NCBI RefSeq assembly: GCF_900312815.1
Contig: NZ_OMPE01000009.1
Span: 1,178,001-1,242,000 of the forward strand
DNA: 64,000 nucleotides
Reading direction: 5' to 3'
DNA from: Aquimarina sp. AU474
Lineage (GTDB): Bacteria; Bacteroidota; Bacteroidia; Flavobacteriales; Flavobacteriaceae
The stretch's first letter is position 1. Each line of letters starts with the position of its first letter. The position numbers and the translations under genes are program-made. This document shows, one piece after another, positions 39,530 to 51,980 of the stretch. The notes under the pieces are model-generated. The model was not told the origin of the DNA and did not search any database. It saw only the letters and a program-made list of their open reading frames with translations.

Positions 39530-39551
39530 AGCTTATTGTTACGAGAGTGTT
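39530..39551 (-). promoter_or_regulatory. Weak candidate Pho-type repeat pair upstream of lipoprotein 1
   Basis: On the - strand AACACTCTCGT and AACAATAAGCT stand directly head to tail at 11-bp spacing, 16 bases upstream of a -7-like GACTTTTG. Only two units, and far from the ATG, so the weakest of the set. Confidence 0.35.
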
Positions 39552-41101: not shown

Positions 41102-43909
41102 TTATAATTTAAGAGTTACCCCTAAGCTAAAATTGATACCATTATCAAATTTATAGGTTGTAAATTCTTGATTTAAATCTTCCTGATCTTGAAATCTTTC
41201 TATAGATGGATTTAATAAGTTTTTAGCTTTAAAACTGATTTCGATATGATCCCCTATTTCATCTTTGAAATTGAAGTTAAGTACGCCAAAACCTTTTTCG
41301 AAAATATCTCCAACTCCATTTCCACCGGCAGAGTATACGCGGTCTCCAAAAATGTTGAAATCTAGTGCTGTTGTGATATTATGCTTTTCGAACTTTTTGC
41401 CATATACCAAATCTGTATTTATTAAAAAAGGAGAAGCACCTTGTAATTGTCTTTCTATATTAGTGGGGGCGATATTAGAACCATTAAAAGTAGTAATGGT
41501 AGGGTCAATCTCTACCTGTGTGTACATGATAGTCGCATTAATCCCAAAATTTAAATTGTTCCATGTTGTTTCTTCTACCTTGAAAAGATTACCTAAGTTT
41601 TTACGGTATTCTAATTCTGCTCCAAAGATTACTACATTGTCAGAATTAACAAATGTGTTTACATTTGATGCTGAGGCTACAAATACCTTTTCGATTGGAT
41701 TTTCGATATACTTACCAAATAAAGTAGCAGCTACTAATTCTCCAGATTGCTCAGGGAAATACTCCCATTTAAGATCGATATTATAATTATCAGAATTTTT
41801 AAGAATAGGATTTCCTAAAGTAGATTCTGTAACATCTTCATCTAAGAAAGGAGCGACCTCTGTAAATTTTGGCAGAGTAACCGTCTTACTTGCTGCAAAA
41901 CGAAGATTAGATTTTTCATTTACCACATATTTTAAACTAATACTTGGTAAAATAAATGTTTCATCAATCTTTTGTGTTCTAAAAGGAGAAGTTTCAAGAT
42001 CTTGTTGTTCTCTATAGAATACATTTTGTTCAAACAGTTCTGTACGAAGACCACCATTAAAGGTTAATTTTTCTGTTAGTGCATATTGTAAATTAACGAA
42101 TCCTGCGATTGTTAATAAATCAGCTTCATAGAGTCTCGTTGTATTAAGGTTCTCTAAAACTACATAGTCTCCGTTTGAAAAATTGGTTTCATTTAATAAT
42201 GCATCAGGATTGTTAAAGTCTACATTAGTATTTCTAAACCCGTTAAGGTTGTAGTTTAATTGATTAGATTCAAAATCTCTGTCTTTGCCTCTCGCGGCAA
42301 CTCCAACAGTAAGTTTGTTTTTGAAATTATCATCTTCATCTTTTCCAAAGTTGATATCAAAATCTACTTTTCCAGAATAATCATTCTCGTTCAACTCTTG
42401 GTAGAAACGTTGATTGTTTGCTAAATCTGGACTTGTACGGTTTCCTAAAACCAAATTTCCATTTTGCAATTCTGTAAATACCAACTGGCGTCTATCTGGA
42501 ATTAATCCTTGAGCTTTATTATATGCTCCACCCCAATCTAATTTGTATTTACCATCTTTAAATTTGTGTTCACCTATTAACTGTTGAGTAAACAGGTTAT
42601 TTTGTTCGTAGGTACCTCTTCTTAAACGAATACCTACATCTGTATCTTCACTACTTACACCATCTGTAAATTCTCTTAATTCATCCTGAGTGTCATTTAC
42701 GAATAAAGTAGTAGCAAGTATTTTATTATTGCTATTCCAACGATATCCTAGGCTTCCTAATAAAGTAGTATTTGTGCTATATTGATAACGGTCAACATTT
42801 CTAAAGTTACCTAGACCAGTAATGCTTTCTCCTTGAGAGTTAAAAGCTGCTTGATTACCACCAAGGGCAGTTCTGTGATTTTGACTAAAAGATCCTGTTA
42901 CTAAAACGTCTAGTTTTTGATCTTCGGCAATGGTAAATGTTTTACCTCCGGCAACACTCATGCCACCATCAGGGCCATTAAATCTTTTTTCTGGATTAAA
43001 AGAAGTGTCAAATGGAAAATAATCAATATCAGTACTTACATAATTGTAATTAGGGATTTCTAAAAAGATAGGTACTCTTCTAGAGCCATCATCAATTCCC
43101 CAATCATCATACTGTCCGCCGTTAAGTAAGAAAAAATCGTTACTGATAGCTTTAGAATTTACTCCAGAATTAAAACTGAATTCTAAAAACCCTTTTCCTG
43201 GGCGGTCTTTGGTATCAATGTTTACACTGGCTCCTGCAAAATCTCCATAAATATCAGGAGAATAAGTTTTGTAAATACCCAAATTCTCAACAATATCTGT
43301 TGGGAAAATACCAAGATCAATAAGTTTTAACTTCGGATTTAAAGAAGGAATAGGTAGGCCATTTAAATATGCATTATTATAACGATCACCTAATCCACGA
43401 ACATAAAGCTTATCACTTTGTTTGGATATACCAGTTGCTTTTGTTAATCCAGTAGCTACATCGCTTACTCCCTTTTTAGAAAGTTCTTGCGCACCAATCT
43501 TCTGTTGAATAGTCACTGCATTTTTCTGTTCTAATAGGATAGCGACTTCAGATTCTTTTGTGGTAGTTGTTTTGATAATTACCTCATCCAAGGCAGCAGC
43601 ACTTGCACCAATAGATGCATTAACGGTTAGTGTTTCTCCTGTTGTAACGATAATCTCTTTGTCAAGAGTTTCGTATCCAATAAAGCTAAATTCTAATATG
43701 TGTACGCCAGGCTGTAAATTATCAATGGTGTATAAACCATCAAAGTCTGTTGTTGTTCCTTTTGTTGTTCCTTTGATTAATACATTAGCAAAAGGAAGAG
43801 GTTGGTTGTTAGATTCCTTGTCTAACAATTTTCCGGTAACCGAACCGGTCTCTTGCGCAAAGAGTATTCCTGCAAAAAATAGCGCAATCAGGGTAACAAT
43901 TTTTTTCAT
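41102..43909 (-). CDS. TonB-dependent outer-membrane receptor 2 (phosphate locus)
   Basis: A 935-residue receptor with signal peptide (1-18), carboxypeptidase-regulatory-like domain (about 22-105), plug (about 125-240, with KLYVRGLGDRYNNAYLNGLP and YGDFAGASVNIDTKDRPG) and a beta barrel ending in Leu-Lys-Leu. It shares the RGLGDRY plug signature and layout with receptor 1. Four 11-bp repeats precede it (43987-44032). First gene of an operon with lipoprotein 2. Transport of a phosphorus source is likely from context but not shown by the sequence. Confidence 0.92.
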   Translation of the reverse strand: MKKIVTLIALFFAGILFAQETGSVTGKLLDKESNNQPLPFANVLIKGTTKGTTTDFDGLYTIDNLQPGVHILEFSFIGYETLDKEIIVTTGETLTVNASIGASAAALDEVIIKTTTTKESEVAILLEQKNAVTIQQKIGAQELSKKGVSDVATGLTKATGISKQSDKLYVRGLGDRYNNAYLNGLPIPSLNPKLKLIDLGIFPTDIVENLGIYKTYSPDIYGDFAGASVNIDTKDRPGKGFLEFSFNSGVNSKAISNDFFLLNGGQYDDWGIDDGSRRVPIFLEIPNYNYVSTDIDYFPFDTSFNPEKRFNGPDGGMSVAGGKTFTIAEDQKLDVLVTGSFSQNHRTALGGNQAAFNSQGESITGLGNFRNVDRYQYSTNTTLLGSLGYRWNSNNKILATTLFVNDTQDELREFTDGVSSEDTDVGIRLRRGTYEQNNLFTQQLIGEHKFKDGKYKLDWGGAYNKAQGLIPDRRQLVFTELQNGNLVLGNRTSPDLANNQRFYQELNENDYSGKVDFDINFGKDEDDNFKNKLTVGVAARGKDRDFESNQLNYNLNGFRNTNVDFNNPDALLNETNFSNGDYVVLENLNTTRLYEADLLTIAGFVNLQYALTEKLTFNGGLRTELFEQNVFYREQQDLETSPFRTQKIDETFILPSISLKYVVNEKSNLRFAASKTVTLPKFTEVAPFLDEDVTESTLGNPILKNSDNYNIDLKWEYFPEQSGELVAATLFGKYIENPIEKVFVASASNVNTFVNSDNVVIFGAELEYRKNLGNLFKVEETTWNNLNFGINATIMYTQVEIDPTITTFNGSNIAPTNIERQLQGASPFLINTDLVYGKKFEKHNITTALDFNIFGDRVYSAGGNGVGDIFEKGFGVLNFNFKDEIGDHIEISFKAKNLLNPSIERFQDQEDLNQEFTTYKFDNGINFSLGVTLKL

Positions 43910-43986
43910 TTAACTTGTTCTGAAATTCTGGGCAAAGAACGTTACGGGGTGTTAAATGTGTGTTATTCAAAAATTAATTATGTATG

Positions 43987-44032
43987 ATTATAATGTTAGA
44001 TAATTGTTATCTACGTTTGTTTACAGAATGTT
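43987..44032 (-). promoter_or_regulatory. Candidate PhoB operator: four 11-bp repeats upstream of receptor 2
   Basis: Read on the - strand: AACATTCTGTA, AACAAACGTAG, two bases, AACAATTATCT, AACATTATAAT. The pairs are exactly 11 bp apart. The array ends 11 bases before a -7-like AATTTTTG, the geometry of an activator box replacing a -33 element. PhoB boxes in other bacteria are 11-bp direct repeats; the regulator assignment here is inferred. Confidence 0.6.
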
Positions 44033-44238
44033 TTCTTAACATTAAGGTTGTTTTACGCTTTCTGTAAATTGTTGGTATATAAGAGTTAGTTGTTGCTTAG
44101 ATGTTTTCTCAGAAAATTGGTTTTGTGTTAAGAAAATATTTTAAAGATAAACGGTGTAAATCCAATATTAAAGGTGTCTAATTGATAAAAGTCAAATAGG
44201 GGAATATAAATTATAATTTTTTTGAAATATTTGGGTAT

Positions 44239-44273
44239 AAAAAAACGTTTCAGATTTCTGAAACGTTTTTTTA
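44239..44273. terminator. Terminator of the MORN-repeat gene
   Basis: A long AT-flanked stem around ACGTTTCAGA/TCTGAAACGT, with A and T runs on both sides, 17 bases after the MORN gene stop on the - strand. Confidence 0.85.
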
Positions 44274-44289
44274 TATTATGTAAGATTGT

Positions 44290-44649
44290 TTAATTTTTGT
44301 AATTCACTACAACATTGTCTTTGTCCGACCAAGTAGTTACATCTGCAATCTGATTATCAGCATAATTTACTTCAGATAACTTATTGGCATTCCAAAAAAA
44401 CCATTTTCCAGTTTTTACACCATTGTTGTATTGTCCCATTGCGATTTTCTTTCCCGTGACATCATATGATTTCCATTCTCCATGAAGCTTACCTTCTTTA
44501 TTATAAAAACCTTGCTGCCTTACATTTCCATTCTCGTGAAAGAAAGTACCTTTAATTTGATCTCCTTGTTTTTCAAAAGTAGGTTTTACATCTTGTGCCA
44601 TTACAGTCGCAGAAAATAAAATGGCCATTGCTACTAATATCTTTTTCAT
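44290..44649 (-). CDS. Secreted MORN-repeat (YwqK-like) protein
   Basis: A 119-residue protein with a signal peptide (1-18, ending VMA before QDV). Three to four MORN_2-type repeats follow (NGNVRQQGFYNKEGKLHGEW, YNNGVKTGKWFFWN). The YwqK-type label antitoxin is a database habit with no support here. It is likely periplasmic or surface-bound; MORN_2 repeats commonly mediate protein or lipid contacts. An array of 11-bp repeats lies 67-110 bases upstream of its start, so it may belong to the phosphate regulon. Confidence 0.78.
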   Translation of the reverse strand: MKKILVAMAILFSATVMAQDVKPTFEKQGDQIKGTFFHENGNVRQQGFYNKEGKLHGEWKSYDVTGKKIAMGQYNNGVKTGKWFFWNANKLSEVNYADNQIADVTTWSDKDNVVVNYKN

Positions 44650-44715
44650 TTTTAACTATTTTAAATTTGTTAGGGCTGTCGACTTATAATATAAGTTTAA
44701 AAATACTACTTATTT

Positions 44716-44759
44716 TACATTTAAACAACATTTGCATAACATTAAATTAACATTGTGAA
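44716..44759. promoter_or_regulatory. Candidate PhoB operator: four 11-bp repeats in the MORN/ChrA divergent region
   Basis: On the + strand: TACATTTAAAC, AACATTTGCAT, AACATTAAATT, AACATTGTGAA, all in perfect 11-bp register. The cleanest array in the window. Orientation points to the ChrA-type gene, but the best -7 match there (TACTTTTG, 44868-44875) is 108 bases on, so which divergent gene it controls is open. Confidence 0.6.
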
Positions 44760-44867
44760 AATAATATACTGATTATAAGCATATTAAATAATATCAAATC
44801 GAGAAATAGATTTATAGGTTGATTAATTGAATTATATGTTTACACTTAAAATTTGTTGTTATATTCA

Positions 44868-44875
44868 TACTTTTG
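44868..44875 (+). promoter_or_regulatory. -7 promoter element (TACTTTTG) for the ChrA-type gene
   Basis: Exact TAnnTTTG match, 42 bases before the ATG at 44918; no good -33 element. Confidence 0.45.
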
Positions 44876-44917
44876 ATCATCGAGTTCGTTATATAATTCC
44901 AAAACATTATTATTTCA

Positions 44918-46048
44918 ATGAATAAAAAGAAAAGACTTATAGAAGTTGCTACTGTCTTCTTTAGGCTAGGTTGTGTTGCTTTTGGAGGTCCAGCTGCTCA
45001 TATCGCTATGATGGAAGATGAAGTTGTTCACAAAAAAAAATGGATGGATAGACAACATTTTTTGGACTTAATTGGAGCAACCAATTTGATTCCTGGGCCC
45101 AATTCTACTGAGATGACTATGCATTGTGGGCATGAACGAGCAGGAGTAGCTGGTTTGTTTGTTGCTGGTGCTTGTTTTGTTTTTCCGGCGGTTGTTATTA
45201 CCGGAATTTTAGCGTGGTTTTATACTTCATATGGGCAATTACCCGAAGTTGCACCTTTTATTATGGGTATTAAGCCTGCGGTATTGGCGATTATTGCATC
45301 GGCTATTTTAAAATTAGGAAAGAAGGCATTAAAGAGTTGGGAAATTGGCGCTATAGGTATTTTAACATTGGTAGCTAGTGTTTTGGGGGTAAATGAAGTT
45401 ATAGCATTATTAAGCGCGGGAGTTTTGGGCGTATTTTACTTTTACTCAAAGTCAGAATTAAATACTACTTCCAAATCAATTGCTCCTCTTTTTTTATTCA
45501 AATTTTCGACAGCTACTTTTGTTAAATTATCTTCCTTAAAGATATTTTGGACTTTTCTAAAAGTAGGTGCTATATTATATGGTAGTGGCTATGTGTTGTT
45601 TGCTTATCTGGATGCTGAGTTAGTCACTAAAGGATGGTTAACAAGACTAGAATTGATAGATGCTATTGCAGTGGGACAGTTCACGCCTGGCCCTGTATTA
45701 TCTACTGCAACCTTTATAGGATATCAATTAGGAGGATTATGGGGAGCTGTTGGGGCAACACTAGGCATCTTTCTTCCGTCTTTTCTATTCGTATTACTTT
45801 TGAATCCTTTAATTCCTAAAATGAGAAAATCCAGAGTATTGAGTTATTTTTTGGATTCAGTAAACATTGCTGCAGTTGCTATAATGTTGTCAGTTTTATA
45901 CGCAATGGGAATAGATACATTAGTTGACTGGAAATCAATCGTAATAGCATTATTAAGTACGTTCTTAATTTTCTTCATTAAAAAAGTAAATGCTATGTGG
46001 ATTGTGCTTGGAGGGGCAATTTTAGGATATTTGTTAAACTTGATATGA
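44918..46048 (+). CDS. chrA: ChrA-family (chromate-type) transporter
   Basis: A 376-residue inner-membrane protein with two CHR domains. The first contains AFGGPAAHIAMMEDEVV and GPNSTEMTMHCGHERAG, the second GQFTPGPVLSTATFIGYQLG. About ten helices. ChrA members export chromate, but many homologues are of unknown specificity. Its place in a phosphate locus and the 11-bp repeats upstream raise the possibility that it moves another oxyanion. It is followed by a structured 3' region ending at a terminator near 46214. Confidence 0.88.
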   Translation: MNKKKRLIEVATVFFRLGCVAFGGPAAHIAMMEDEVVHKKKWMDRQHFLDLIGATNLIPGPNSTEMTMHCGHERAGVAGLFVAGACFVFPAVVITGILAWFYTSYGQLPEVAPFIMGIKPAVLAIIASAILKLGKKALKSWEIGAIGILTLVASVLGVNEVIALLSAGVLGVFYFYSKSELNTTSKSIAPLFLFKFSTATFVKLSSLKIFWTFLKVGAILYGSGYVLFAYLDAELVTKGWLTRLELIDAIAVGQFTPGPVLSTATFIGYQLGGLWGAVGATLGIFLPSFLFVLLLNPLIPKMRKSRVLSYFLDSVNIAAVAIMLSVLYAMGIDTLVDWKSIVIALLSTFLIFFIKKVNAMWIVLGGAILGYLLNLI

Positions 46049-46088
46049 AGATATTTTTAACGATACCTTAAAGTTGTGATAACATAAA

Positions 46089-46180
46089 AACTCGCCAAAA
46101 AAAATACTTTTGACGAGTCGTAAGACATATTGTAATTTCAAAAAATCGTATTAGTTTTTGTCGACTTAGATTTTTGAAAT
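46089..46180 (+). other. Two hairpins between chrA and its terminator
   Basis: ACTCGcCAAAA pairs with TTTTGaCGAGT (46090-46117), and ATTTCAAAAAATC with GATTTTTGAAAT (46135-46147 with 46169-46180, 21-base loop). With the terminator at 46184-46214 they make three consecutive stem-loops downstream of chrA, a possible structured 3' UTR or small RNA. Confidence 0.35.
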
Positions 46181-46183
46181 ACA

Positions 46184-46214
46184 GGGCTGGTCATAAGTGA
46201 TCAGCCTTTTTTTT
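46184..46214 (+). terminator. Rho-independent terminator downstream of chrA
   Basis: A stem GGCTGGTCA/TGATCAGCC (46185-46193 with 46198-46206, one mismatch), TAAG loop and T8 run. It isolates the porin gene from chrA. Confidence 0.82.
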
Positions 46215-46265
46215 GCTATTGCATAAGTACTTAAAAAAAAGGGGATTTTAAAATAATCATTATAA

Positions 46266-46290
46266 AACATTAAGTTAACATTAACTTAAC
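46266..46290 (+). promoter_or_regulatory. Candidate PhoB operator: 11-bp repeats upstream of the porin
   Basis: AACATTAAGTT and AACATTAACTT are directly adjacent (46266-46276, 46277-46287) and a third unit begins AACAC. The array ends ten bases before GTTCTTTG (46301-46308), a degenerate -7 element, 45-69 bases from the ATG. Confidence 0.65.
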
Positions 46291-46334
46291 ACGGGTGTTG
46301 GTTCTTTGCAGCGACAAAAAACTAGTACGGAATT

Positions 46335-47534
46335 ATGAAATTAAAGATTACCCTAACAGCGTTAACTCTTTTTACGCTTTGCTTTGTAAATGCACAAGAA
46401 ATTACCGAAACTAAATTTGGAAAAGGAATTCTAAATGTTGTCGCTAAGGACAGTTCTTGGAGCATGAAATTTGCAACTAGAATGCAATTTCTTTCAACTA
46501 CGGGATGGGATATTAATGACGGAGATTATAGTAAGCCAGAAACGAATTTCTTGGTACGAAGAGCTCGTTTAAAGTTTAGTGGTTTTGCGTATAGTCCAAA
46601 ACTTAAATATAAAATAGAACTTGGTTTATCTAATAGAGATATCTCAGGAGCTTCGGAATTCACAAATGATGCCCCTCGATATATTCTTGATGCTGTTATC
46701 AAATGGAATTTTTATAAAAACTTTACGCTCTGGGCAGGACAAACAAAATTACCTGGTAACGTAGAACGTGTTATCTCCTCGGCAAATTTACAACTAGTAG
46801 ATCGTTCGAGATTAAACAGTAGATTTAATATTGATCGAGATCTTGGTGTACAGTTAAGACATCACTTTAAAATATCAGATAAATTTTTAGTGAGAGAAGC
46901 ATTTGCTATTTCTCAAGGTGAAGGAAGAAATATTACAACAGGTAATCTAGGAGGACATCAATATACAAGTAGAGTAGAATTACTACCTTTTGGAAAATTT
47001 CAGAGCAAAGGGGATTATAAAGGAGGAGATCTTAAAAGAGAGCAGACTCCTAAATTAATGCTTGCTGCCACGTATGATTTTAATGCAGATGCTGTTAAAA
47101 ATAGAAGTAACCAGGGATCATATATGGAGACCAGTACAGGTTTTTTCGAAACTAATATCTCAACAATATTTGTTGATGCTGTATTTAAGTACAAAGGTTT
47201 TTCTTTTATGGGAGAATTTGCCGATCGAGATGCAGATGAGGCAATAGCTGTAGAAGAAGATGGTACTCCAACAGGAGATATCGTACAGGTTGGTAATGCA
47301 TTAAATTTACAGGCTGGATATTTATTTAAAAGTAACTGGGAAGTAGCAGGACGTTATACTAATCTTAATTTTGATGCTGTTGTTGGTAGAGCTTTGGAAG
47401 AGCAATACACTCTTGGAGTTTCTAGATATGTGGCTGGGCATAATTTAAAAGTGCAGTCGGATATAAGTTATACTACAGAAGCTGGCGAAGGTAGTGGGTT
47501 AATGTACAGATTACAATTTGACATACATTTCTAA
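46335..47534 (+). CDS. Phosphate-selective porin O/P family protein
   Basis: A 399-residue outer-membrane barrel of the OprP/OprO family. Signal peptide (1-20, CFVNA before QE), then FLVRRARLKFSGFAYSPKLKYKIELGLS and FTLWAGQTKLPGNVERV, both typical of the family, and a C-terminal strand ending LQFDIHF. In Pseudomonas OprP is a starvation-induced phosphate channel. It is directly upstream of the Pit transporter gene (78 bases) and has its own operator-like repeats. Confidence 0.92.
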   Translation: MKLKITLTALTLFTLCFVNAQEITETKFGKGILNVVAKDSSWSMKFATRMQFLSTTGWDINDGDYSKPETNFLVRRARLKFSGFAYSPKLKYKIELGLSNRDISGASEFTNDAPRYILDAVIKWNFYKNFTLWAGQTKLPGNVERVISSANLQLVDRSRLNSRFNIDRDLGVQLRHHFKISDKFLVREAFAISQGEGRNITTGNLGGHQYTSRVELLPFGKFQSKGDYKGGDLKREQTPKLMLAATYDFNADAVKNRSNQGSYMETSTGFFETNISTIFVDAVFKYKGFSFMGEFADRDADEAIAVEEDGTPTGDIVQVGNALNLQAGYLFKSNWEVAGRYTNLNFDAVVGRALEEQYTLGVSRYVAGHNLKVQSDISYTTEAGEGSGLMYRLQFDIHF

Positions 47535-47549
47535 ACACTGTGTAAATAC

Positions 47550-47571
47550 ATAACAGTTTGATAACATTAAG
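47550..47571 (+). promoter_or_regulatory. Candidate PhoB operator: 11-bp repeats upstream of pit
   Basis: ATAACAGTTTG (47550-47560) and ATAACATTAAG (47561-47571) are exact tandem 11-mers sharing ATAACA. A -7-like AATATTTG (47587-47594) follows 15 bases later, then the ATG at 47613. Confidence 0.6.
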
Positions 47572-47612
47572 CTGAGAATTGATTATAATATTTGCACCTT
47601 AAATAAAAAGTA

Positions 47613-50000
47613 ATGGATAATATTTATTTATTAATGGTTGTTGCTCTTGCTGTACTGGCAATTGCCGACCTTATTGTAGGAGTTAGTAACGATGCCGTTA
47701 ATTTTTTGAACTCTGCAATTGGCTCTAAAGCTGTGTCTTTTAGAACAATTATGATTGTTGCTAGTATTGGTATTGCGGCTGGGGCCATTTTTTCTAGTGG
47801 ATTGATGGAGGTAGCACGGAAAGGGATATTTAATCCCGGAGAATTCTATTTTGATGAGATCATGATCATCTTTATGGCGGTAATGATTACCGATATACTC
47901 CTGCTCGACTTTTTTAATACACTTGGGATGCCAACATCAACAACAGTATCTATTGTGTTTAACCTTTTGGGAGCAGCCGTTTGTGTGGCATTAATCAAAA
48001 TTGGTGCAGATCAAGGACAAACTTTTGCAGATTTAGAGAACTATATAAATACTAAAACTGCTAAAAAAATCATCAGCGGTATTCTACTCTCGGTAGTTAT
48101 TGCATTTTCGGTTGGTGCTCTTGTGCAGTTTATTACTCGTTTATTATTATCTTATAATTTTGAAAAGAAAGCAAAATGGGTTGGTGCCTTGTTTGGAGGA
48201 ATTGCATTGACTGCATTATTGTATTTCATTTTTATGAAAGGGATCAAAGGAACCGCATATGCAAAAGCAATAGTTGATGTTGTATATAGTGGAGGTCCAG
48301 AAGGATTATTAACGGCGGCTAAAGATTATTTTGGTACTTCTTATGAAACAATAAAAGAGTTGGCCAAAGATCAAAAAGACTTGTTTAAGATTGATGGAGA
48401 AGCAGGTACGATTAAAATGACATTAAGAGGGTTTTTAGAAACCTATGTATTACCAATAGTAGGGGTTGGTTTTGTGTTTTGTTCACTACTATCGTATGTT
48501 ATAATTCACTTTTTTAAAGTAAATATTTACAAATTAATCATCATCATCGGTACTTTTGGATTGGCATTAGCTTTTTCAGGTAACGATTTGGTAAACTTTA
48601 TTGGTGTTCCAATTGCTGGTTGGCAATCCTATGAAGCTTGGATAGCTTCCGGAATACCTGCAGCAGAATTTGCGATGGACGGTTTGGCTAAAAAGAGTGA
48701 AACTCCGGTATTCTTGTTATTTGCAGCCGGTGCTATTATGGTGCTTACATTGTGGTTGTCTAAAAAAGCGAGATATGTCGCAGATACAGAGATTAACCTT
48801 TCTAGAGAAGGAGAAGCCAAAGAACGTTTCAAACCTAATTTTTTATCTAGAGGTGTTGTAAGAGGAACAGTATTGGCCTCGCAGGGACTTGCTGCTATTA
48901 CACCAAAGCAGACAATGGAATTTATAGAAAAACGTTTTACGAAACCAGTAATAGAATTACCAAAAGATAAGACCTATGAAATGCCAGCATTTGATATGGT
49001 AAGAGCTGCTGTAAACCTTGTTGTTGCTGGAATCCTTATTTCGATTGCGACTTCTATGGGATTACCTTTATCTACAACATATGTAACATTTATGGTAGCT
49101 ATGGGTACCTCATTAGCGGATAGAGCATGGGGAACAGAGAGTGCTGTGTATAGGGTAGCAGGAGTGTTAAATGTGATAGGCGGATGGTTTATGACCGCAA
49201 TCAGTGCATTTATCGCTGCAGGAACAGTAGCATTCTTGATTAACCTTGGTGGTGCTCCAATGATTGCTGTATTATTACTTGTTGCTGTATTGCTTCTTGC
49301 TAGAAATACAATAAGTTATAGAAAGAGAGTGAAAGCAGAGAAGGCAGAAGATAGCCTTAAAAATTCTGAAAGTAGTTCTGTACAAGGTGTGATTGAAGAA
49401 AGTGCAGATAATATTAAGTCTTTTGTAAATAGAGGAACTAAAATCTATACAAATACGATAGAAAGCTTAGTGAAATATGATTTGCCAGCTTTAAAGAAAA
49501 GTAAAAAAGGAATTGCTAAACTTGATGCAGAAGTTGAAGACCTAAGGGATAATATCTTTTATTTTATTAAAAACTTAGATGAGTCGAGTGTGGGTGCAAG
49601 TAATTTTTATATTAACATCTTAGGATATTTACAAGATATGTCTCAGTCATTAGAATATATTTCTAAAGCGAGTCATAAGCATGTGAATAATAACCACAAG
49701 AAACTTCGATTTAATCAAATTAAAGATTTGAAAGAAATTGAAGAGCAATTGACAGAGTTGTTTGGGCAAATTAAAAAAGCGTTTAATGATAGAGATTTTG
49801 ATCAGGTAGATGCTATTCTTAATGAAAAACAAGAATTGTTCAATAAAGTTAATGAGAAAATTGACAAGCAAGTTGCAAGGACCAGAACAGAAGAAAGCAG
49901 TCCTAAGAACACTACTTTATATTTTGGATTACTGTTAGAAACTAAAGATTTAATAACAGCAACCATGAATTTATTAGAAACATATAAAGATCATAAATAA
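47613..50000 (+). CDS. pit: Pit-type inorganic phosphate transporter with C-terminal PhoU-like domain
   Basis: A 795-residue protein, far longer than ordinary PitA (about 500). The two PHO4 signature loops are present: GVSNDAVNFLNSAIGSKA (23-40) and SGNDLVNFIGVPIAGW (322-337), with two sets of helices and a C-terminal set (GLPLSTTYVTFMVAMGTSL). From about 590 to 795 follows a soluble helical PhoU/DUF47-like region (SLVKYDLPALKKSKKGIAKL onward). In bacteria PhoU restrains phosphate transporters and signals to PhoR, so a built-in PhoU-like domain may do both. No separate phoU is in the window. Confidence 0.9.
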   Translation: MDNIYLLMVVALAVLAIADLIVGVSNDAVNFLNSAIGSKAVSFRTIMIVASIGIAAGAIFSSGLMEVARKGIFNPGEFYFDEIMIIFMAVMITDILLLDFFNTLGMPTSTTVSIVFNLLGAAVCVALIKIGADQGQTFADLENYINTKTAKKIISGILLSVVIAFSVGALVQFITRLLLSYNFEKKAKWVGALFGGIALTALLYFIFMKGIKGTAYAKAIVDVVYSGGPEGLLTAAKDYFGTSYETIKELAKDQKDLFKIDGEAGTIKMTLRGFLETYVLPIVGVGFVFCSLLSYVIIHFFKVNIYKLIIIIGTFGLALAFSGNDLVNFIGVPIAGWQSYEAWIASGIPAAEFAMDGLAKKSETPVFLLFAAGAIMVLTLWLSKKARYVADTEINLSREGEAKERFKPNFLSRGVVRGTVLASQGLAAITPKQTMEFIEKRFTKPVIELPKDKTYEMPAFDMVRAAVNLVVAGILISIATSMGLPLSTTYVTFMVAMGTSLADRAWGTESAVYRVAGVLNVIGGWFMTAISAFIAAGTVAFLINLGGAPMIAVLLLVAVLLLARNTISYRKRVKAEKAEDSLKNSESSSVQGVIEESADNIKSFVNRGTKIYTNTIESLVKYDLPALKKSKKGIAKLDAEVEDLRDNIFYFIKNLDESSVGASNFYINILGYLQDMSQSLEYISKASHKHVNNNHKKLRFNQIKDLKEIEEQLTELFGQIKKAFNDRDFDQVDAILNEKQELFNKVNEKIDKQVARTRTEESSPKNTTLYFGLLLETKDLITATMNLLETYKDHK

Positions 50001-50055: not shown

Positions 50056-50100
50056 TTCATATAATATCCTATAAATTAATAACTAAATAGTAAGGTTAAG

Positions 50101-50141
50101 TAAATGTTATGATCGAATGACTCTAATGTTAGTATATTGTT
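50101..50141 (-). promoter_or_regulatory. Candidate PhoB operator (reverse orientation) upstream of phoB
   Basis: Read on the - strand: AACAATATACT, AACATTAGAGT, an 11-bp step lacking the motif, then AACATTTA, all in 11-bp register. It is 75-116 bases before the phoB ATG, opposite in orientation to the gene, and 39 bases from TATATTTA (50181-50188, a one-mismatch -7). Autoregulation is possible. Confidence 0.45.
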
Positions 50142-50216
50142 ACTAAGCTCATATTAATATGGATACTTCGTATTATGTACTATATTTACCTTACTATTAT
50201 GTAATTCTAAAATAGA

Positions 50217-50900
50217 ATGAATAAAAAAGATATTACGATCCTATTAGTAGATGACGAGCCTGATATTTTGGAAATCGTTGGGTATAATCTTACAGCTGAA
50301 GGCTATCATGTTGTTACAGCAGAAAACGGAGTAGAAGCTGTAAAACTAGCCAAAAAGAAAAAACCACATTTAATCATCTTAGATGTAATGATGCCGGAAA
50401 TGGATGGTATCGAAGCTTGTGAGCAAATTCGAAAAATACCAGAACTACAAAATACGATTATTACCTTCTTAACAGCAAGAGGAGAAGATTACTCTCAGGT
50501 GGCTGGTTTTGATGCTGGAGCAGATGATTATATCACTAAACCTATTCGGCCTAAAGTTTTAGTAAGTAAAGTAAAAGCATTGCTGCGTAGATTGAAAGAA
50601 GATGACTCTTCAGATAGCGTTGTTAAAATTGGAAGCTTGGTAATCAATCGCGATGAGTATAAGATCATTAAAGACAAAAAAGAGATTGTTTTACCTAGAA
50701 AAGAGTTTGAATTATTATCTTTATTGGCCTCTAAACCAGGTAAAGTATTTAAAAGAGAAGATATCCTAGATAAGGTTTGGGGTAATGAAGTAATTGTGGG
50801 TGGTCGTACTATCGATGTTCATATTAGAAAGTTGAGAGAAAAGATCGGTGATAATAGCTTCAAAACTATCAAAGGAGTGGGGTATAAGTTTGTAGAGTAA
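50217..50900 (+). CDS. phoB: Response regulator, PhoB type
   Basis: A 227-residue OmpR/PhoB-family regulator. Receiver domain 1-120: acidic pocket VDDEPD (11-16), phospho-acceptor Asp56 in LIILDVMMPEMDG, switch region and Lys in DDYITKPIRPK. Winged-helix DNA-binding domain about 130-225 ends GVGYKFVE. It lies directly before the phoR-type kinase and after porin and pit, so a phosphate-starvation role is very likely. Such regulators bind 11-bp direct repeats as tandem dimers, as seen in front of several neighbours. Confidence 0.93.
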   Translation: MNKKDITILLVDDEPDILEIVGYNLTAEGYHVVTAENGVEAVKLAKKKKPHLIILDVMMPEMDGIEACEQIRKIPELQNTIITFLTARGEDYSQVAGFDAGADDYITKPIRPKVLVSKVKALLRRLKEDDSSDSVVKIGSLVINRDEYKIIKDKKEIVLPRKEFELLSLLASKPGKVFKREDILDKVWGNEVIVGGRTIDVHIRKLREKIGDNSFKTIKGVGYKFVE

Positions 50901-51980
50901 ATGGCAGAAAATTTTAAAAAGTCGTATAGGTTTGCATTCCTTTCGTCTTTATATATCACCATTATATTGACGCTCGTTATGAGCGTTTTTTTATATGCTC
51001 AATCAGTGATAAATCCAAAGTATATAATTGGTTTTGTATTGGTTTGTTATATAGTTAGCTTTAGTATTATTCAATACCGTGTAGAACGTTTTATTTATCG
51101 TAGAGTTCGTAAAATCTATGATGATATTGAAATGTTGGAAGCAGATGCTATTGAAGATACACCCGTAACTACAGATATGAGGACACTCATAAAAGAGGTA
51201 GAAAAATTTGCACAACAACGCAAAACAGAGATTGAAACCTTAAAAATCCGAGAGGATTATCGTAAAGAGTTTATGGGTAATGTTTCTCATGAACTCAAAA
51301 CACCTTTATTTACTGTGCAAGGATATATATTAACCCTGTTGGATGGTGCAATGGATGATCCAGCAATTCTTGACAAGTACCTTAATCGCGCAAATAAAGG
51401 TGTAGAACGATTGATTTATATCGTAAATGACCTTGATATGATTACTAAACTAGAGGTAGGTGATCTAAATCTTAATTATACAAATTTTGACATTGTAGAA
51501 CTGGTACAAAGCGTGTTCGATCTTTTTGAAATGAAAGCTGCTAAAAAGAATATCGCGCTTACTTTTGACATGAACTATTCTGAACCTATACTTGTTCATG
51601 CCGATAGAGAGCGAATACAACAAGTGTTGTCTAATTTGGTAGTTAATTCTATAAAATACGGAAAAGAAGATGGAACAACCGAGGTAAGTGTAGAAGATCT
51701 CATTCGTAATAAAGCGATTGTAAGGGTAACCGATAATGGAGAAGGTATTGCCCAAGCACATATCCCAAGATTGTTTGAGCGTTTTTATCGTGTCGATAAA
51801 AGTGGTTCTAGAAAAGAAGGAGGCTCTGGGCTCGGGTTAGCTATTGTTAAGCACATTATCGAAGCCCATCATGAACGTATTTATGTAGAAAGTGATTATC
51901 GTGTGGGTAGTGAGTTTTCATTTACTTTGGAAAAAGTGAAAAAGTTCCCCGTAGTCGATGTCAGTACTAAAACTACTTAA
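50901..51980 (+). CDS. phoR: Sensor histidine kinase, PhoR type
   Basis: A 359-residue kinase with two close N-terminal helices (12-33, 40-58) and no periplasmic domain, as in PhoR. The HisKA domain has His130 in FMGNVSHELKTPL; the ATPase domain has VVNSIKYG (N box), DNGEGIA (G1) and GGSGLGLAIVKH (G2). There is no recognisable PAS domain between. It starts immediately after the phoB stop. Its last 63 bases overlap the oppositely oriented glycosyltransferase gene. Confidence 0.93.
   Translation: MAENFKKSYRFAFLSSLYITIILTLVMSVFLYAQSVINPKYIIGFVLVCYIVSFSIIQYRVERFIYRRVRKIYDDIEMLEADAIEDTPVTTDMRTLIKEVEKFAQQRKTEIETLKIREDYRKEFMGNVSHELKTPLFTVQGYILTLLDGAMDDPAILDKYLNRANKGVERLIYIVNDLDMITKLEVGDLNLNYTNFDIVELVQSVFDLFEMKAAKKNIALTFDMNYSEPILVHADRERIQQVLSNLVVNSIKYGKEDGTTEVSVEDLIRNKAIVRVTDNGEGIAQAHIPRLFERFYRVDKSGSRKEGGSGLGLAIVKHIIEAHHERIYVESDYRVGSEFSFTLEKVKKFPVVDVSTKTT

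What the first reader, a model, noticed from the sequence alone, without database searches (positions are those of the whole stretch)
43987..47571. Tandem 11-bp AACAtt repeats upstream of several pho-locus transcripts: candidate flavobacterial PhoB box
In-register direct 11-mers AACATT(n)5 occur at 43987-44032, 44716-44759, 46266-46290 and 47550-47571 (and less clearly at 39530-39551 and 50101-50141). For the porin, receptor 2, pit and lipoprotein 1 they end 10, 11, 15 and 16 bases before a degraded -7 element whose first T is missing. That geometry fits an activator replacing the -33 site, as PhoB does elsewhere (established for E. coli, where the repeat is also 11 bp but the sequence differs). 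A quick look at other long spacers in the window (4004, 15772, 23598, 33215) did not find such arrays.
Basis: partly seen in the sequence, partly recalled or inferred. Interest (0 to 1): 0.8.

Follow-up and report, generated by a model that had tools for sequence, protein, structure and literature searches.

The report
Flavobacterial phosphate box and porin-pairing RNA
The repeats look like the switch that turns on phosphate-uptake genes in this bacterium and its relatives, and one such switch sits before a predicted small RNA, absent from the RNA-family library searched, whose loop matches the start of the phosphate-porin message.

Summary
A 22-bp matrix trained on 59 other genera puts its eight best window sites at or beside the reported arrays. 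The 11-bp repeats (consensus TTAACATTNNN) recur upstream of porin, pit, a MORN-like gene, a TonB receptor and phoB in relatives: held-out receptors 20 of 22, other ORFs 3 of 238, in one register to the -7 element. The published Riemerella PhoP motif, TTTAACA (PMC9603813), agrees. A PhoB box is very likely; binding is untested. The 39530 array is weak, and PhoX genes mostly lack the box (3 of 30).

Its loop pairs with the porin mRNA leader; native pairs beat all 10,000 permutations. A covariance model built without the window finds it here at E=3.8e-11 and within 3 kb upstream of pit in 28 of 34 genomes not fetched before. Likely role: PhoB-driven control, probably repression, of the phosphate porin. 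Transcription and effect are inferred.

The parts
50217..50900 (+). phoB-like response regulator gene (presumed binder of the boxes)
   Evidence: Response_reg + Trans_reg_C; best NCBIfam model PhoB TIGR02154, 217.2 bits, below its cut-off of 296.2
50901..51980 (+). phoR-like histidine kinase gene
   Evidence: best models PnpS and PhoR, below cut-off
50089..50143 (-). Pho-box array upstream of phoB, reversed relative to the gene
   Evidence: matrix scores 20.7 and 18.4; a reversed site >=9 also in 16 of 30 phoB upstreams of another genus
43989..44010 (-). Pho box of the TonB-dependent receptor gene 41102-43909 (further 11-bp half-sites seem to continue towards its -7)
   Evidence: score 16.9; at 76-81 bp from ATG in 15 of 20 boxed relatives; -7 GTTCTTTGC, TTTG at 43936
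44714..44757 (+). four-repeat Pho-box array, reversed relative to the 119-aa MORN-like gene 44290-44649 (-)
   Evidence: scores up to 25.3; a site scoring >8 in 39 of 39 MORN-like upstreams of relatives, which were in training; reverse half-sites at period 11
46057..46089 (+). degenerate Pho-box array in front of the candidate small RNA (TTAACGAT, TTAAAGTT, ATAACATA)
   Evidence: lies at offsets 8, 19 and 30 of the family register (offset 19 scores below 3 in the window); sRNA promoters of relatives, not in training, have best offsets 19, 30, 8 and 30, 19, 8; matrix score itself weak
46105..46112 (+). -7 element TACTTTTG of the small RNA
   Evidence: matches TAnnTTTG (consensus recalled); position
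46115..46213 (+). candidate small RNA (5' end inferred), three hairpins
   Evidence: covariance model built without window or its genus mate: E=3.8e-11 at 46111-46213; folding z -4.46
46149..46163 (+). pairing region TATTAGTTTTTGTCG in the loop part of hairpin 2 (outer stem 46135-46140 / 46175-46180)
46185..46213 (+). intrinsic terminator of the small RNA
   Evidence: terminator stem of relatives has both-sided changes at 6 of 7 pairs
46264..46293 (+). Pho box of the porin, three half-sites
   Evidence: scores 23.3 and 18.9; register 19/30, third half-site TTAACACG weaker
46300..46309 (+). porin -7 region GGTTCTTTGC
   Evidence: similar in relatives
46311..46327 (+). porin mRNA leader complementary to the small RNA (one bulged A and one G-U here)
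   Evidence: duplex -21.6 kcal/mol
46335..47534 (+). phosphate-selective porin O/P-type gene
   Evidence: PF07396, E=7.3e-13
47550..47571 (+). Pho box of pit
   Evidence: score 13.3; register 19/30, TTTG at 47591
47613..50000 (+). pit phosphate transporter gene
   Evidence: PF01384, E=2.1e-27

Best explanation
The arrays are PhoB-binding boxes: tandem 11-bp half-sites (TTAACATTNNN) held in one register to a -7 element, so that phosphorylated PhoB takes the place of a -33 element and switches on the porin, pit, receptor and MORN-like genes and phoB itself during phosphate shortage. One further, weaker box drives a roughly 100-nt small RNA encoded just upstream of the porin on its strand (between the MORN-like gene and the porin in many relatives; here chrA lies between). 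The RNA shows a U-rich sequence in a hairpin loop that pairs with the first 15 or so bases of the porin mRNA, close to its start codon, and most likely lowers porin translation, giving an incoherent feed-forward loop. Shown: the repeats, their register, conservation and specificity; the RNA's terminator, predicted structure and conservation; the co-varying pairing. Inferred: PhoB binding, induction at low phosphate, transcription start sites, that the RNA is made, and that it represses rather than protects.
For: Matrix from loci of 59 other genera finds the window arrays against 0.47 expected sites. Receptors not in training 20 of 22 against 3 of 238 other ORFs. Autocorrelation of all four promoter sets peaks at lag 11, and forward half-sites fall at the same offsets from TTTG. 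At the F. johnsoniae phoBR locus the receptor Fjoh_0545 (tabulated FC 8.02), lipoprotein Fjoh_0546 (9.91) and PhoB (3.06) rise at phosphate depletion (PMC8115612, section with Table 1). Riemerella PhoP DAP-seq motif TTTAACA (PMC9603813, passages). Small RNA: model hit in window E=3.8e-11, not in training; of 81 hits of 50 bits or more 71 lie within 3 kb upstream of the best Pit match on its strand, and of 34 other genomes not fetched before 28 do, 1 lies further off and 5 on another contig; pairing native -20.3 against swapped -18.2 kcal/mol, 0 of 10,000 permutations as good; porin leaders 44 of 44 tested with z<-3; 90 exact seed-gap-leader stretches in a collection of 84,980 species, all 90 titles being genera that I place by recall in Flavobacteriaceae or records called Flavobacteriaceae, Flavobacteriales, Bacteroidia or Bacteroidetes bacterium, 89 of the 90 with a box before the leader.
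Against: No binding, TSS or expression data for this organism. PhoX-family upstreams have a box in only 3 of 30 loci. PhoB falls below the curated cut-off of the PhoB models. F. johnsoniae OprP was not induced (FC -1.3, FDR 0.245); whether that strain has the RNA was not tested, and of the genomes of a large genus that I guess to be Flavobacterium (g112) 13 listed ones have no model hit and 2 only weak ones. The window's sRNA box scores weakly. Genomes G105 and G013 keep the RNA without a porin beside it and without a leader match elsewhere, so porin control cannot be the whole story there. The core of the pairing (leader columns 5-12) was largely fixed by the search anchors, and the permutation does not remove relatedness. 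101 of 199 family genomes gave no model hit at E<=1e-3.
Confidence: 0.72

Rival explanations
1. The boxes are PhoB boxes, but the inverted repeat around the terminator is a DNA-level or single-transcript element (regulator site, or a hairpin of read-through mRNA), not a small RNA acting on porin mRNA. (Rivals 1 and 2 share the box reading with the best explanation.)
For: The two complementary stretches lie on one strand some 100-125 bp apart, so a read-through transcript could fold back. No expression data.
Against: A conserved promoter register before, and a terminator stem with both-sided changes between, the two stretches; folding z of -3.5 to -5.3 in five RNAs; some pairs are G-U; in G105 and G013 the seed and terminator persist without the partner.
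Confidence: 0.15
2. The small RNA activates or stabilises porin mRNA by covering its 5' end, making a coherent loop.
For: Pairing covers the inferred first bases of the message, where end protection is possible.
Against: The paired stretch reaches to within a few bases of the start codon, where 30S loading would be blocked (inference).
Confidence: 0.2
3. The repeats bind another OmpR-family regulator with TTAA-type 11-bp direct repeats, not PhoB.
For: The Riemerella authors note that their PhoP motif resembles E. coli ArcA's; PhoX genes mostly lack it.
Against: Arrays cluster at phosphate genes and at phoB itself; the phoB product is the regulator encoded at the locus.
Confidence: 0.07
4. The repeats are chance in AT-rich DNA.
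For: At up to two mismatches the genome-wide pattern search is mostly noise (29 places against 20 for the control).
Confidence: 0.01

Closest known systems
Pho boxes of E. coli PhoB (CTGTCAT) and B. subtilis PhoP
   Same: Two or more 11-nt direct repeats with 7 well-conserved and 4 less-conserved bases (PMC4415409, passages); E. coli TGTCA against TGTTA of the reverse reading here; TTAACA-like core of Bacillus (recalled).
   Different: Base sequence TTAACATTNNN; both orientations used at one locus, the forward ones in one register to a -7 element.
Riemerella anatipestifer PhoP motif (DAP-seq)
   Same: Most conserved bases TTTAACA; binding upstream of its own operon (PMC9603813, passages).
   Different: Compared by its authors with ArcA's motif and not, in the passages seen, described as an 11-bp array at porin and pit; only 50 of 764 candidate genes changed in the mutant.
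Porin-controlling antisense sRNAs of enterobacteria (MicF type; recalled)
   Same: Small RNA pairing near the start of a porin mRNA, co-regulated by an OmpR-family system.
   Different: Encoded next to its target on the same strand, apparently dedicated mainly to one leader, behind a Pho box, in bacteria said to lack Hfq (recalled).
Rfp18 and other sRNAs of Flavobacterium psychrophilum
   Same: Structured, conserved flavobacterial sRNA (PMC9723704, passages).
   Different: Rfp18 is tied to metalloprotease mRNAs; the terms PhoB and porin do not occur in that paper's main text; sequences were not compared.

Membership tests
PhoB/PhoP-type Pho box | tandem direct repeats with 11-bp period | tested here: met
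   autocorrelation peak at lag 11 in all four promoter sets
PhoB/PhoP-type Pho box | fixed position next to the core promoter | tested here: met
   half-sites at offsets 19, 30, 41 with TTTG at 60 for porin, 19 and 30 for pit; promoters are inferred, not mapped
PhoB/PhoP-type Pho box | found before phosphate genes, rare elsewhere | tested here: met
   but PhoX 3 of 30
PhoB/PhoP-type Pho box | bound by PhoB; induced at low phosphate | not testable with these tools
   published support from other species only:
PhoB (TIGR02154 equivalog) | score above the curated cut-off | tested here: not met
   217.2 against 296.2 bits, yet the best-scoring of 102 families matched
OmpR/PhoB-type response regulator | receiver plus winged-helix C-terminal domain | tested here: met
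   PF00072 and PF00486 above cut-off
Intergenic base-pairing sRNA | own promoter and intrinsic terminator | tested here: met
   by sequence and conservation only
Intergenic base-pairing sRNA | co-varying pairing with a target mRNA | tested here: met
Intergenic base-pairing sRNA | discrete transcript with an effect in trans | not testable with these tools
   no RNA data
Any Rfam 15 family | score at gathering threshold | tested here: not met
   window: 0 matches at gathering; five relatives: no match with E<=1 over the RNA

The most novel reading that the evidence does not exclude
A phosphate-regulon small RNA widespread in Flavobacteriaceae, with no Rfam 15 match, is switched on by PhoB together with its neighbour, the phosphate porin, and pairs with the porin's first bases in an incoherent feed-forward loop; because some genomes keep it after losing the porin, and some receptor leaders also match it, it is a regulator with further targets.
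Probability: 0.55. Interest if true: 0.85.

Novelty: new variant of a known kind. Interest (0 to 1): 0.74.

Why it matters
It gives a usable operator code for phosphate control in a large bacterial family, so regulons can be read from genomes. It also adds a predicted regulatory RNA with one clear target in a group where, as far as I know, few sRNA-target pairs are established, with natural compensatory pairs that make a direct genetic test possible.

Tried and rejected
Genome-wide pattern at up to two mismatches: mostly noise; the one-mismatch places L003, L004, L005 and L008 lie near what by eye look like a small lipoprotein-like ORF, an OmpA-like gene, rpiB and rpoD and were not taken as pho sites. 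PhoX as an independent test: box in 3 of 30 upstreams, mostly against the reading; one of the 30 (L141) was misplaced because its stretch is cut by a contig end. My first PhoX, phoB and other-family Pit scans left minus-strand loci unturned; they were repeated turned and only those counts are used. Other exact matches of the leader 14-mer in 149 genomes: 20 stretches holding such matches were read; 3 belong to porin/sRNA loci, 17 are isolated, none of these with a Pho box, several inside ORFs. A near match to the leader in the own genome lies inside an ORF of the other strand. Other leaders at the locus: 3 of 23 receptor leaders and 1 of 31 MORN leaders (the window's own) pair with z<-3; pit 0 of 47, lip440-type 0 of 19, unk429-type 0 of 12, TBDR1-type 0 of 6, chrA 0 of 5, phoB 0 of 4, phoR 0 of 2. 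Rfam: nothing. Plasmids: no match. A count of 29 of 30 fresh genomes included the window's own genome and left out hits on other contigs; one search replaces it. Literature: searches for a Bacteroidetes Pho box or a PhoB-linked flavobacterial sRNA (some lists capped, for example 12 of 163) listed no paper that I recognised as describing this RNA or an 11-bp AACATT box at porin and pit; only open-licence papers are held, and I read one section of one paper and passages of five papers.
Full report
CHECK. I fetched the Pit neighbourhood of 60 other genomes, 59 of other genera and one of the same genus, chosen from the 196 of 199 family genomes with a Pit match. Gene order receptor, lipoprotein, MORN-like ORF (opposite strand), porin, pit is common. 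Starts were assigned for 52 porins, 64 pits, 41 MORN-like ORFs and 4 phoB genes, window included. A 22-bp matrix was trained on 151 upstreams without the window and its genus mate; 143 of 151 gave a site scoring above 6. Scanning all 64 kb on both strands, the top eight sites are 44736, 46264, 50089(-), 46275, 50122(-), 43989(-), 44725 and 47550, scores 25.3 to 13.3. Markov resamplings give 0.47 sites >=13 per 64 kb, though one of 60 reached 21.8. The 39530 array scores 6.6 at best.

SPECIFICITY. In the 60 loci (817 kb) 260 of 267 sites >=13 lie within 250 bp upstream of the pho-locus genes, which make up 59 kb; this includes training sequences. The test outside training is the receptor: 20 of 22 have a forward box >=9, 15 of these 76-81 bp from the ATG. 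Less marked are lip440-type ORFs (7 of 21), TBDR1-type receptors (3 of 8), unk429-type ORFs (8 of 13) and phoB (2 of 3). Controls: 3 of 238 other ORF upstreams, 7 of 2908 random windows, chrA 0 of 4. In another genus (g112) the phoB upstream has a box in 16 of 30, each with a reversed site, one with a forward site too. In another family of the order 7 of 12 readable Pit upstreams have it (16 of 60 genomes had a Pit match). PhoX-family upstreams have it in 3 of 30, so many phosphatase genes may be controlled otherwise, for instance through the sigma factors that rise in F. johnsoniae (inference).

GEOMETRY. With promoters anchored on TTTG, all four sets (porin 48, sRNA 41, pit 51, MORN 27) show an autocorrelation maximum at lag 11. 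A half-site matrix puts the best forward offsets at 30, 41, 19 for porin and 19, 30 for pit; for the sRNA promoters, never in training, at 19, 30 and 8 (33 promoters), and again 30, 19, 8 in 60 promoters. The MORN-like and phoB boxes are reversed. So one regulator appears to work in both orientations, or the orientations differ in effect; this is open.

THE SMALL RNA. Between the MORN-like gene and the porin, relatives carry a conserved block: Pho box, -7, GTCTTAAGAC hairpin, U-rich stretch, terminator. Of 31 such intergenic regions 2 (L045, L066) lack the U-rich seed. In the window chrA sits between the MORN-like gene and the block. Porin leaders (GCGACAAAAACTAATA) are complementary to the U-rich stretch. 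Of 52 porin loci 45 have both elements, 6 lack both by the starts assigned and 1 (L082) lacks only the RNA within 900 nt; one of the six (L052) has a start right behind its box that may be misassigned. Leader columns 4-18 pair in 36 to 45 of 45; flanking columns in 7 to 26 of 45. Columns 5-12 were largely fixed by the anchors. Native duplexes average -20.3 kcal/mol, swapped -18.2; none of 10,000 permutations reached the native mean. Relatedness of genomes is not removed by that test, but L089, L077, L070 and L096 show changes on both sides. The terminator stem has both-sided changes at 6 of its 7 pairs. Five RNAs folded with z -3.5 to -5.3.

DISTRIBUTION. The covariance model (39 sequences, without window and genus mate) hits 98 of 199 family genomes at E<=1e-3, many of the weakest probably chance, with the window at E=3.8e-11. 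In an order-wide draw of 196 genomes the strong hits are in the window's family; other families give E>=6.9e-6. Of 81 hits of 50 bits or more (80 genomes), 76 share contig and strand with the best Pit match and 71 lie within 3 kb upstream. Of 34 other genomes not fetched before, 28 have it within 3 kb, 1 (G052) further off and 5 on another contig than the best Pit. An exact seed-gap-leader pattern hit 90 stretches in a collection of 84,980 species (two are from one contig). All 90 titles are genera that I place by recall in Flavobacteriaceae or records called Flavobacteriaceae, Flavobacteriales, Bacteroidia or Bacteroidetes bacterium. Of the 90, 89 have a Pho box before the leader, 84 an ORF start within 45 nt and 76 a T-run between; 81 are not identical to the earlier loci, 80 of these with a box.

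TARGETS. Porin leaders pair with z<-3 in 44 of 44 tested. Receptor leaders do so in 3 of 23, MORN in 1 of 31 (the window's own), and pit in 0 of 47. In L064 a porin-like protein of 402 aa that the window's porin did not find by tblastn sits under the same promoter and leader. In G105 (L054) and G013 (L088) no porin lies between RNA and pit, the RNA remains, and no leader-like match is found elsewhere at up to three mismatches.

MECHANISM. Low phosphate, PhoR, PhoB phosphate, binding to the boxes, and transcription of porin, pit, receptor, MORN-like gene, phoB and the RNA; the RNA then pairs with porin mRNA. The sRNA box is more degenerate, so it may respond later or at stronger starvation, trimming porin output (inference). 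Published data for F. johnsoniae show the receptor and lipoprotein of its phoBR locus strongly induced and OprP not; whether that strain has the RNA was not tested.

KNOWN. Pho boxes as 11-nt repeats are known, and a PhoP motif with TTTAACA is published for Riemerella. Bacteroides fragilis PhoB binds the pstC promoter by EMSA, without a stated box sequence in the passages seen. The box is therefore a well-defined new member of a known kind. The RNA has no Rfam 15 match and is in no paper that I recognised among those my searches listed; it is the more novel part.

Noticed in passing
window 44918-46048: A chromate-transporter gene (chrA) sits between the MORN-like gene and the small RNA in the window and its genus mate L039, splitting an intergenic region that is short in many other genera.
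   Followed up: partly
L054 (6880-6990) and L088 (6681-6785): Small RNA kept although no porin lies between it and pit; no leader match elsewhere in those genomes.
   Followed up: partly
L064, 5966 onward: A different porin-like protein of 402 aa under the same Pho box, leader and small RNA: coding part exchanged with control kept.
   Followed up: partly
L063, L078, L079, receptor leaders: Receptor mRNA leaders GATAAAAACTAATA or similar are also complementary to the small RNA, with a G-U pair.
   Followed up: partly
L174 (G122): Second porin-type leader with Pho box and its own small RNA in one genome.
   Followed up: partly
L173 (G106): Complementarity between small RNA and porin leader extends over about 30 bases, including the -7 region; near a contig end, perhaps repeat conversion or assembly.
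   Followed up: no
L005, 1500-1530: One-mismatch AACATT triple repeat upstream of an rpiB-like gene elsewhere in the genome.
   Followed up: no
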